Source of the DNA: Halapricum salinum
Lineage (GTDB): Archaea; Halobacteriota; Halobacteria; Halobacteriales; Haloarculaceae
Length of the DNA stretch: 64,000 nucleotides
Direction: 5' to 3'
Assembly (NCBI RefSeq): GCF_004799665.1
Contig: NZ_CP031310.1
Span: forward strand, 1,356,887 to 1,420,886
This document shows, piece by piece, positions 6,126 to 34,240 of the stretch (the first letter of the stretch is position 1; each line of letters starts with the position of its first letter). Position numbers and translations under genes: made by a program. The notes under the pieces were generated by a model. The model was not told the origin of the DNA. It searched no databases and worked only from the letters and a program-made list of their open reading frames with translations.

Positions 6126-6522
6126 CGAACCCGTCCTTCGAACTGGGTCGGCAAGTACGTGACGGTCAGCAGTAGGAACGGAAAGAAAATCGGACGCGAG
6201 CGACGAGGCGCTGAGAGTGTTTCGAGAGAGTGCGGAGCGGTGGCCGCGCTGGCGGCTTGTCGCCAGCGTCCGGGGAAGGGCAGGCCTGCTGAGCGGTTGC
6301 GGTGCGGGAGCGGTGCGGTTAGTGTCCAGCATACGGCGACGCAGTCGCCGTTTTCCCGTCAGAGCTTCGCTCTGACGACGTTCACGTCGTTGCACTCCGT
6401 GAACCCCCGGAATCGCCCTGATAAGGCGATTCCGGCTTTTTTCCCCAAGTTTTTCTCGCGCAGTGGTGCCCGCAGCGCGCCTTGCAGGGCGCGCGAGGAC
6501 ACCCGAGCGAGAAAAAGTGGGT
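6126..6522. repeat. Intergenic region with modular 3' repeat element (copy A, at about 6230-6522)
   Basis: No gene is visible between thsA and the prenyl synthase. Read on the minus strand, starting 3 bases after the thsA stop, it contains: CACTTTTT, a variable hairpin (GCGCGCC/GGCGCGC), GCTGCGGGCACC, the linker AAAAACTTGGGGAAAAA, a hairpin CCGGAATCGCC/GGCGATTCCGG, further insert sequence, the hairpin ACGGCGAC/GTCGCCGT followed by ATGCT, and finally GCAGGCCTGCCCTTCCCC at 6272-6289. The same ordered modules follow serB, polC and metY. The T-run just after the stop suggests transcription termination. Bases 6126-6229 hold the promoter region of the prenyl synthase. Confidence 0.75.
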
Positions 6523-10730: not shown

Positions 10731-10945
10731 AACCACTTTTTACTTCGTCGGGTGTCCTCGCGAGCGCATAAAAGCGCTCGCTGCGGGCACCTCTCCTCGT
10801 AAAAACTTGGGGAAAAAGGCCGGAATCGCCTTGCGAGGGCGATTCCGGGGAAACGGCGGCCTGCGGCCGCCGTATGCTTGCCAACTCCGCAGCCGCAGGC
10901 CTGCCCTTCCCCGGTTCGCGCGGTCACGACACGCGCTCACGGCCG
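10731..10945 (+). repeat. Modular 3' repeat element, copy B (after serB)
   Basis: Starts at the serB stop. Order of parts: ACCACTTTTT; hairpin CGAGCGC/GCGCTCG; GCTGCGGGCACC; linker AAAAACTTGGGGAAAAA; hairpin CCGGAATCGCC/GGCGATTCCGG; GGAAACGGC; hairpin ACGGCGGCC/GGCCGCCGT followed by ATGCTTG; then GCAGGCCTGCCCTTCCCC at 10901-10918 and a short GC hairpin. It lies between the convergent serB and serS genes. Compared with copy A, linkers are almost identical while two of the hairpin stems carry paired changes. Confidence 0.8.
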
Positions 10946-19137: not shown

Positions 19138-19577
19138 CGCAGGACAGCGGACTCGACGACACGCCGTAGCTCGACAGTAGCGGCGCGCGGTGGCGACTCG
19201 CTTGTGAGTCGACGGCGACGCGCGAGGTGTTCGTGAGTCGACGGCGAACGCTTGGAAGTGCTTGCTCTTCCAGTAGATGAGGAACGCAGCGAGCGGCGCG
19301 AGCGAGTAACGCAGTCGGCTGGGGAGGTTTGTGGCTGTCTATAGCGGTGCAGTCGTGGAAGTCACCAGCATACGGCGACTGCGTCGCCGTTTCCCCGCGA
19401 GCGGTGCGAGACGCGACCGAAGGTCGGGTCTCGATTGCGAACGGTGAGCGGAGCGAGCCGTGAGCGCTCTACCGAGCGCGAGCGGCCTTTTTCCCCACGT
19501 TTTTGCGTGAGAGTGGTCCGCCACGAGCCGGCAGGCTCGTGTGCGAGACCCGAACTCGCAAAAACGTGAGTGCCGGA
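19138..19577. repeat. Gene-free gap with modular 3' repeat element, copy C (about 19340-19577)
   Basis: No gene is visible. From the polC stop on the minus strand the modules are: CGTTTTTG, a long hairpin (CGAGCCTG/CAGGCTCG), linker CAAAAACGTGGGGAAAAAGG, a long GC-rich hairpin region, GGGGAAACGGC, and the hairpin ACGGCGAC/GTCGCCGT followed by ATGCTGG at 19367-19390. The GCAGGCCTGCCC module is missing or degenerate. Bases 19200-19250 hold a 15-bp direct repeat GTGAGTCGACGGCGA (19205-19219 and 19230-19244) and other GC-rich hairpins. Confidence 0.65.
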
Positions 19578-33705: not shown

Positions 33706-33776
33706 GTGTTTCTGTCTTTTTGTCGGGTGCTACTCGTTGGCTAGGAATCGTCGCTATCACTGGGGGCAACAAGCAG

Positions 33777-33902
33777 GGAAAGCCCTCGCCTCGCTGGCGG
33801 TCGCTGAGAAGGATATCTTCGCTCGCTTTGCTCGCTCAGATAGAGCCTGCTCAGCGACTCCACTACGTCGCCAGCGAGTCTCGCCCTTTCAATCCGCCAG
33901 GA
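33777..33902 (+). repeat. Intergenic repeat family 2, copy 1
   Basis: Starts GAAAGCCCTCGCC, continues GGCGGTCGCTGAG, ATATCTTCGCT and ends CGCCCTTTCAATCCGCCAGG. The reverse complement is present, imperfectly, at 34241-34361. Confidence 0.6.
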
Positions 33903-34240
33903 TCCGCACCGCTACAGCAGGCCTGCCCTTCCGCCACCACTTTTTCCTCCCTCGGGTTTCCTCGTTCGCTTTGCTCACTGCGGGAACCACTCGGTCAGAA
34001 AAACGTGGGGAAAAACGACCCGGACGACTCACTCACTTCGTTCGTTTGCGTCCGGTGAAACGGCGTTCGCTTCGCTCGCCGTATGCTTGTACTGACCGCA
34101 CAGCAGGCCTGCCCTTCCCCGAGTCGCGCGCTGAAACGCGCTCCTGGCCACCGCCGAGCGGTCAGGAAGCGTGTTCCGGCGCCACTCGCGCCGGAACCGG
34201 GGAGGTGTGGGGCTACAATAAGGCGGTTGCGGTGATGTCA

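What the first reader, a model, noticed from the sequence alone, without database searches (positions are those of the whole stretch)
6230..6522. Modular repeat element follows stop codons of thsA, serB, polC and metY in gene orientation
At four loci (6230-6522 minus, 10731-10945 plus, 19340-19577 minus, 33706-34160 plus) the same order of modules begins within about 15 bases of a stop codon: a T-run, a hairpin, GCGGGCACC-like box, AAAAAC(T/G)TGGGGAAAAA, a hairpin, GAAACGGC, a hairpin ending GCCGTATGCT, and in three copies GCAGGCCTGCCCTTCCCC. Stems differ among copies with paired changes (for example ACGGCGAC/GTCGCCGT and ACGGCGGCC/GGCCGCCGT) whereas linkers are nearly constant. The covariation suggests a structured 3' RNA or termination/processing element that has been dispersed, possibly with its own mobility.
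Basis: seen in the sequence. Interest (0 to 1): 0.78.

Follow-up and report, generated by a model that had tools for sequence, protein, structure and literature searches.

The report
Dispersed gene-end hairpin terminators in haloarchaea
A folded DNA element of about 140 bases is copied dozens of times in salt-loving archaea, almost always directly behind genes, where it probably stops transcription in both directions; it appears to have spread from gene end to gene end with no identified enzyme to move it.

Summary
A ~140-nt, three-hairpin element (P1, P2, P3) occurs four times in the window. Its exact 16-nt core occurs 44 times in this 3.45-Mb haloarchaeal genome, and a covariance model finds it in 75/76 genomes of the family and 120/146 of the order. 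Compensatory changes are abundant. Its 5' end lies 0-6 nt behind a stop codon in 81 of 136 copies (7.4 expected), or 0-7 nt behind a tRNA. Across subfamilies the basal stem changes with compensation, while three five-base T tracts persist in 63-67 of 68 copies: one on the sense strand, two on the antisense strand. T5 is the experimentally strong terminator of a haloarchaeon. I read it as a compact two-way transcription terminator that has spread between gene ends. Evidence for spreading: ndk carries a copy in 1 of 6 congeners; reverse-oriented copies are flanked by direct repeats of 17-127 bp; there are tandem arrays. No reverse transcriptase or Y1 transposase was found in the genome. The structure is optimised on the antisense strand (54 elements to 1), which terminator function alone does not explain. 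The metY copy is 231 nt from its stop, and the GCAGGCCTGCCC box is a separate repeat. Term-seq would decide.

The parts
6328..6520 (-). copy 1, behind thsA (stop TGA 6525-6523, 2-nt spacer); P1 + core + P2 + extra hairpins + P3 ending ATGCT
   Evidence: CM E 5.6e-22 over 6377-6520
10733..10878 (+). copy 2, behind serB (stop TAA 10728-10730, 2-nt spacer); the cleanest complete copy
   Evidence: E 9.4e-32
10737..10741 (+). sense T5 tract of copy 2 (5' arm of P1 basal stem; putative terminator for the upstream gene)
   Evidence: sequence; T5 kept in 67 of 68 copies across subfamilies; T5C terminates 95% in H. volcanii (PMC7237163)
10801..10816 (+). core AAAAACTTGGGGAAAA of copy 2; carries the two T tracts of the antisense strand
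   Evidence: 44 exact copies and none with 1 mismatch in the genome
10820..10848 (+). hairpin P2 of copy 2 (CCGGAATCGCC / GGCGATTCCGG)
   Evidence: covariation
10853..10878 (+). hairpin P3 of copy 2 and 3' box ATGCT
   Evidence: closing pair A-U 24 / C-G 16, never broken
19367..19569 (-). copy 3, behind polC (stop TAA 19580-19578, 8-nt spacer); variant basal stem TCACG-T5 / A5-CGTG
   Evidence: E 1.4e-13
33937..34087 (+). copy 4, 231 nt downstream of metY, directly behind a separate GCAGGCCTGCCC repeat
   Evidence: E 5.5e-28

Best explanation
A dispersed, structure-conserved gene-end element of Halobacteriales that acts as a compact two-way transcription terminator and insulator, and that has spread from gene end to gene end. 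Sense transcripts of the upstream gene stop at the T5 tract 4-10 nt behind the stop codon or tRNA. Transcripts arriving from the other side pass hairpins P3 and P2 and stop at the double tract T5-N7/8-T5. Shown here: the anatomy, covariation, placement, conservation of the three T5 tracts across subfamilies, presence at one gene end in a single species of six, and flanking direct repeats and arrays. Inferred: termination itself, and the route of spreading (copying or template switching, or an unidentified recombinase acting on the antisense-strand hairpins).
For: Placement 0-6 nt behind sense stops in 81 of 136 copies against 7.4 expected (largest of 10,000 simulations 18), and behind tRNA genes. 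In a second sample of 40 loci chosen by model score from families f1, f2, f4, f6, f7, f8 and f10, 18 follow stops and 6 follow tRNAs. The three T5 tracts are kept in 67, 64 and 63 of 68 copies, while the basal stem swaps CCA/TGG, CGA/TCG and GTA/TAC. T5 starts within 12 nt of the stop in only 3.7% of genes without the element. T5C gives 95% termination in H. volcanii (PMC7237163). The next gene is convergent in 47 of 73 against 84 of 210 at other genes (p 4e-4). The core has 44 exact copies and none with 1 mismatch, which suggests every copy is constrained. Spreading: ndk has the element in 1 of 6 congeners; direct repeats and arrays.
Against: No transcript data were available. The strand bias of the hairpins is as strong where the next gene runs the same way (46:6) as where it converges (38:4), and it includes P1, beyond the antisense T tracts; terminator function alone does not predict this. 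Archaeal T-tract termination needs no hairpin, so the heavy structure asks for a further role. Some copies, such as the metY copy, are not next to a gene end.
Confidence: 0.55

Rival explanations
1. Chiefly a selfish, non-autonomous mobile element (MITE- or SMR-like, perhaps moved as single-stranded DNA through the antisense-strand hairpins) that targets gene ends; any termination is incidental and serves only to make insertions harmless.
For: Presence at ndk in one of six congeners; direct repeats of 17-127 bp around reverse-oriented copies and tandem arrays; antisense-strand bias of GNA triloops and tandem GA pairs, independent of context; imperfect terminal repeat CCAC-T5 / A5-CGTGG.
Against: No decayed cores: 44 exact, 0 with one mismatch. 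Near-universal presence in the family with compensatory evolution. No Y1 transposase in the genome; no exact match in viral contigs, and no phage match. No detectable duplication around the many sense-oriented copies.
Confidence: 0.25
2. A structured 3' UTR or small RNA: the upstream transcript runs through, and the folded RNA protects or regulates the mRNA.
For: Position and orientation behind genes; strong covariation; a conserved U-G wobble at columns 23/58 that pairs only on the sense strand.
Against: A strong terminator motif stands at the very start of the element on the sense strand; the antisense strand folds better (RNA -71.3 against -67.3 kcal/mol, lower in 35 of 50) and carries the stabilising loops; copies also follow tRNA genes.
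Confidence: 0.12
3. A DNA-level landmark (for example for a nucleoid, condensin or topoisomerase factor), like some REP/BIME sequences, needing no transcription.
For: Chromosome-wide dispersal, hairpins capable of cruciform extrusion, lineage-uniform cores suggesting a recognised site.
Against: Does not explain the exact stop and tRNA adjacency or the conserved T5 tracts on both strands.
Confidence: 0.06

Closest known systems
REP / BIME sequences with RAYT transposases (bacteria)
   Same: Short dispersed hairpins in many copies, often close behind stop codons, strand-specific structure (REP near stops: PMC12306157).
   Different: Three hairpins with conserved linkers, three T5 tracts, order-wide compensatory evolution; the genome has no Y1 transposase.
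ERIC, BOX and RUP repeats (bacteria)
   Same: Modular, structured, intergenic, no coding capacity, unknown or borrowed mobilisation (from general knowledge; BOX/RUP paper PMC3049150 listed).
   Different: Archaeal; placed exactly at ends of protein and tRNA genes; different sequence and anatomy.
Small mobile repeats (SMR) and PATEs of Haloquadratum walsbyi (PMC3119063)
   Same: Haloarchaeal, about 110 bp (SMR-A), many copies, no transposase, inverted terminal repeats, mobilisation enigmatic.
   Different: SMRs are reported without target duplications and with other mobile elements as targets; here targets are gene ends. Sequences could not be compared.
Archaeal U-tract (aCPSF1-dependent) terminators
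   Same: T5 tract shortly behind genes; works like one (PMC7237163, PMC8716108, PMC7515710).
   Different: Ordinary archaeal terminators are short T runs without a conserved multi-hairpin body.
Integron attC sites
   Same: Sit behind stop codons; folded on the bottom strand; variable stems with conserved structure (general knowledge).
   Different: No RYYYAAC/GTTRRRY core seen; genes are housekeeping and tRNA genes, not cassettes in an array.

Membership tests
archaeal T-tract transcription terminator | T tract of 5 or more on the coding strand shortly behind the gene | tested here: met
   T5 starts at +4 to +10 in most sense-type copies; 3.7% of other genes have T5 within 12 nt; conserved in 67 of 68
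archaeal T-tract transcription terminator | transcripts end there | not testable with these tools
   no transcript data
REP/RAYT | Y1 (RAYT) transposase available in the genome | tested here: not met
   PF01797: no match in own genome; controls ring, including H. volcanii
SINE-like retroposon | reverse transcriptase available | tested here: not met
   PF00078: none in own genome, 5 of 382 Halobacteria
SINE-like retroposon | variable-length target site duplications | tested here: inconclusive
   direct repeats of 17-127 bp around reverse-oriented copies, none around sense-oriented ones; some repeats look like alleles of other species
MITE | terminal inverted repeats | tested here: inconclusive
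   P1 ends form CCAC-T5 / A5-CGTGG, but P2 and P3 lie outside it
MITE | fixed short target duplication and a related transposase | tested here: inconclusive
   repeats vary in length; a related transposase was not searched for
integron attC | R''/R' boxes RYYYAAC and GTTRRRY | tested here: not met
   alignment A1 shows no such conserved boxes at the element's ends or core (by inspection)
any Rfam family | score over the gathering threshold | tested here: not met
   no match in the window; only sub-threshold animal microRNA matches
Haloquadratum SMR | sequence relationship | not tested
   SMR sequences not held

The most novel reading that the evidence does not exclude
A new class of mobile element whose insertion is aimed at the 3' ends of genes or mature RNAs (stop codons and tRNA ends alike), propagated through a single-stranded antisense DNA form with GNA/tandem-GA hairpins by template switching or an unknown enzyme, and domesticated order-wide as terminators.
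Probability: 0.22. Interest if true: 0.9.

Novelty: new variant of a known kind. Interest (0 to 1): 0.74.

Why it matters
If right, most members of Halobacteriales carry dozens of standardised terminators as dispersed, spreading cassettes, so that the ends of transcripts of chaperonin, polymerase, metabolic and tRNA genes are shaped by one repeat family. It would link repeat dispersal to transcription termination in archaea, supply ready-made two-way terminators for archaeal genetics, and pose a testable question: how does an element find gene ends without a known transposase?

Tried and rejected
Retroposition by a resident reverse transcriptase: attractive because of variable-length repeats and short unmatched spacers before CCAC, but no RT in the genome. 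REP/IS200 mobilisation: no Y1 transposase. Phage or plasmid carriage: no exact match in viral contigs, no phage match, two partial plasmid matches. Antisense RNA as the sole reason for the strand bias: rejected because the bias does not depend on the next gene's direction. A general haloarchaeal hairpin bias: co-directional intergenic hairpins outside elements show none (24 GNA against 21 TNC; the large '-+' count in that table probably comes from runs of N and was ignored). GCAGGCCTGCCC as a module: rejected. Treating every flanking repeat as a simple target duplication: qualified, because X copies at the radical-SAM gene differ from the adjacent gene only at synonymous sites and resemble other species, so recombination between species also shaped them.

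Full report
What is there. The window lies in a 3.45-Mb haloarchaeal chromosome. The four reported loci share a real element. A covariance model built from 40 relatives finds exactly four copies in the window with E from 9e-32 to 1.4e-13. The 16-nt core AAAAACNTGGGGAAAA occurs 44 times in the chromosome with no reversed-pattern control matches. With up to three mismatches allowed there is no copy with one mismatch, two with two, and a number with three that is close to the control. The stems of these copies differ widely while the core does not. I take this as strong constraint, or homogenisation, of the core in every copy.

Anatomy. Sense strand: CCAC, five T, a variable stem, an upper stem with a conserved U-G wobble and a bulged U, a variable hairpin, the returning strands, then AAAAAC(T/G)TGG, GGAAAAAC, hairpin P2, (G)TGAA, hairpin P3, ATGCT. 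On the 40-row alignment 93.2% of paired cells form standard pairs, against 35-49% when partners are slid by one to three columns. There are 165 cells changed on both sides, against 16-59 when slid and 46 in shuffles. The closing pair of P3 is A-U in 24 and C-G in 16 sequences and is never broken. The structure was partly chosen from these sequences, so the paired percentage is inflated; the double changes are less affected.

Distribution. A pattern scan of named genomes gave 84 loci, 82 of them in Halobacteria: Haloarcula, Natronomonas, Halapricum, Halosimplex, Halorientalis, Halovenus, Salinarchaeum, Haloglomus, Halohasta and others. There was no exact match in viral contigs, and phage and plasmid collections gave none and two partial matches. 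Weak matches in some families may reflect general haloarchaeal hairpins; many are below 1e-15. Subfamilies differ in the basal stem with compensation: CCAC/GTGG, CCAT/ATGG, CGA/TCG, GTA/TAC. What stays is the sense T5 (67 of 68), the first A5 (64) and the second A5 (63), the last two usually 7-8 nt apart.

Placement. With a simple gene finder of my own, 81 of 136 copies with both neighbours start 0-6 nt behind a stop codon in the gene's direction, against 7.4 expected from their own gaps; the largest of 10,000 simulations was 18. Thirteen copies follow tRNA genes, ten of them by 1-2 nt. A second sample of 40 loci, taken by model score and not by the exact core, gave 18 stops and 6 tRNAs. The same gene ends carry the element in several genera, for example thsA. 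The next gene is convergent in 47 of 73 cases, against 84 of 210 elsewhere. Convergent pairs sometimes carry one element each (L038, L073, L109, L101).

Which strand folds. Triloops are TNC on the sense strand, thus GNA on the antisense strand, and tandem mismatches are TC/TC, thus GA/GA on the antisense strand. By element the vote outside this genome is 54 to 1. GNA triloops closed by C-G and tandem sheared GA pairs are known stabilising motifs (general knowledge), and predicted energies agree. Hairpins elsewhere in intergenic regions show no such bias, and the bias is the same before co-directional and convergent genes. The structure therefore serves the element on its antisense strand as such. 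This is the least explained finding; it fits antisense hairpins upstream of the antisense double T tract only in part.

Spreading. Many of these are flanked by direct repeats of 17-127 bp: a second copy of the gene's last bases stands 2-6 nt before CCAC. A congener has three tandem elements separated by 24-bp copies of a gene end, with P1, P2 and P3 shuffled between units. At ndk the element is present in one of six congeners. Repeat copies at a radical-SAM gene differ from the neighbouring gene at synonymous sites and resemble other species, so recombination between species has contributed. No reverse transcriptase or Y1 transposase is found in the genome.

How it most likely works. T5C terminates 95% of transcripts in H. 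volcanii (PMC7237163), and archaeal termination at U tracts involves aCPSF1 (PMC8716108, PMC7515710; titles and abstracts read). The only sequence features kept across all subfamilies are T5 tracts on both strands, and the element stands where a terminator would stand. I therefore propose a two-way terminator cassette, at 0.55. The step from motif to termination is inference.

Novelty. No Rfam family matches, and the library searches found no description of such an element in haloarchaea, though the library lacks most subscription papers. The kind, dispersed structured gene-end repeats, is known from bacteria; the haloarchaeal SMRs and PATEs (PMC3119063) are the nearest archaeal relatives in kind. 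Its exact gene-end placement, the tRNA targets, the three T5 tracts and order-wide compensatory evolution set it apart.

Limits. Gene calls are heuristic. The main sample was chosen by exact core. Model E-values are rough. Counts per genome are lower bounds. Relatedness among copies was not fully corrected.

Noticed in passing
window 6274-6292, 10896-10914, 33917-33932, 34103-34120: GCAGGCCTGCCCTTCCCC is a separate repeat (about 20 other places in the genome), often followed by a GGGTCGCG...CTCCCGGCCACC hairpin; it frequently lies next to the element.
   Followed up: partly
L009, L024, L154, L156, L165, L149 (own genome): A P1 variant with two extra hairpins and its own conserved linkers (CTCTGCTCACGG...CCGTTCGCATGG...) is shared by several copies.
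   Followed up: no
L038 (2860-2936 +), L073 (2087-2163 -), L109 (1663-1738 -): Divergent subfamily keeping only CCACTTTTTRC and GCAAAAACTTGGGGAAAA around a different inner stem (GGTCGCGCGCC...GGCGCGCGAC), also near stop codons.
   Followed up: partly
L053 7785, L064 7468 (-), L071 6157 (-), L105 2657 (-); own genome 1273200: Sister core AAAAACGTGGGYGAAAAAGGCGC, a common form in other genera.
   Followed up: yes
own genome copies L001-L012: P2 is nearly identical (CCGGAATCGCC...GGCGATTCCGG) among many copies of this genome but different in other genera: concerted evolution or recent exchange of hairpin modules.
   Followed up: partly
L057, L072, L113: Degenerate pieces of the tRNA 3' half stand downstream of elements that follow tRNA genes.
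   Followed up: partly
382 Halobacteria genomes: Reverse transcriptases (PF00078) are nearly absent from the class: 5 genomes.
   Followed up: no
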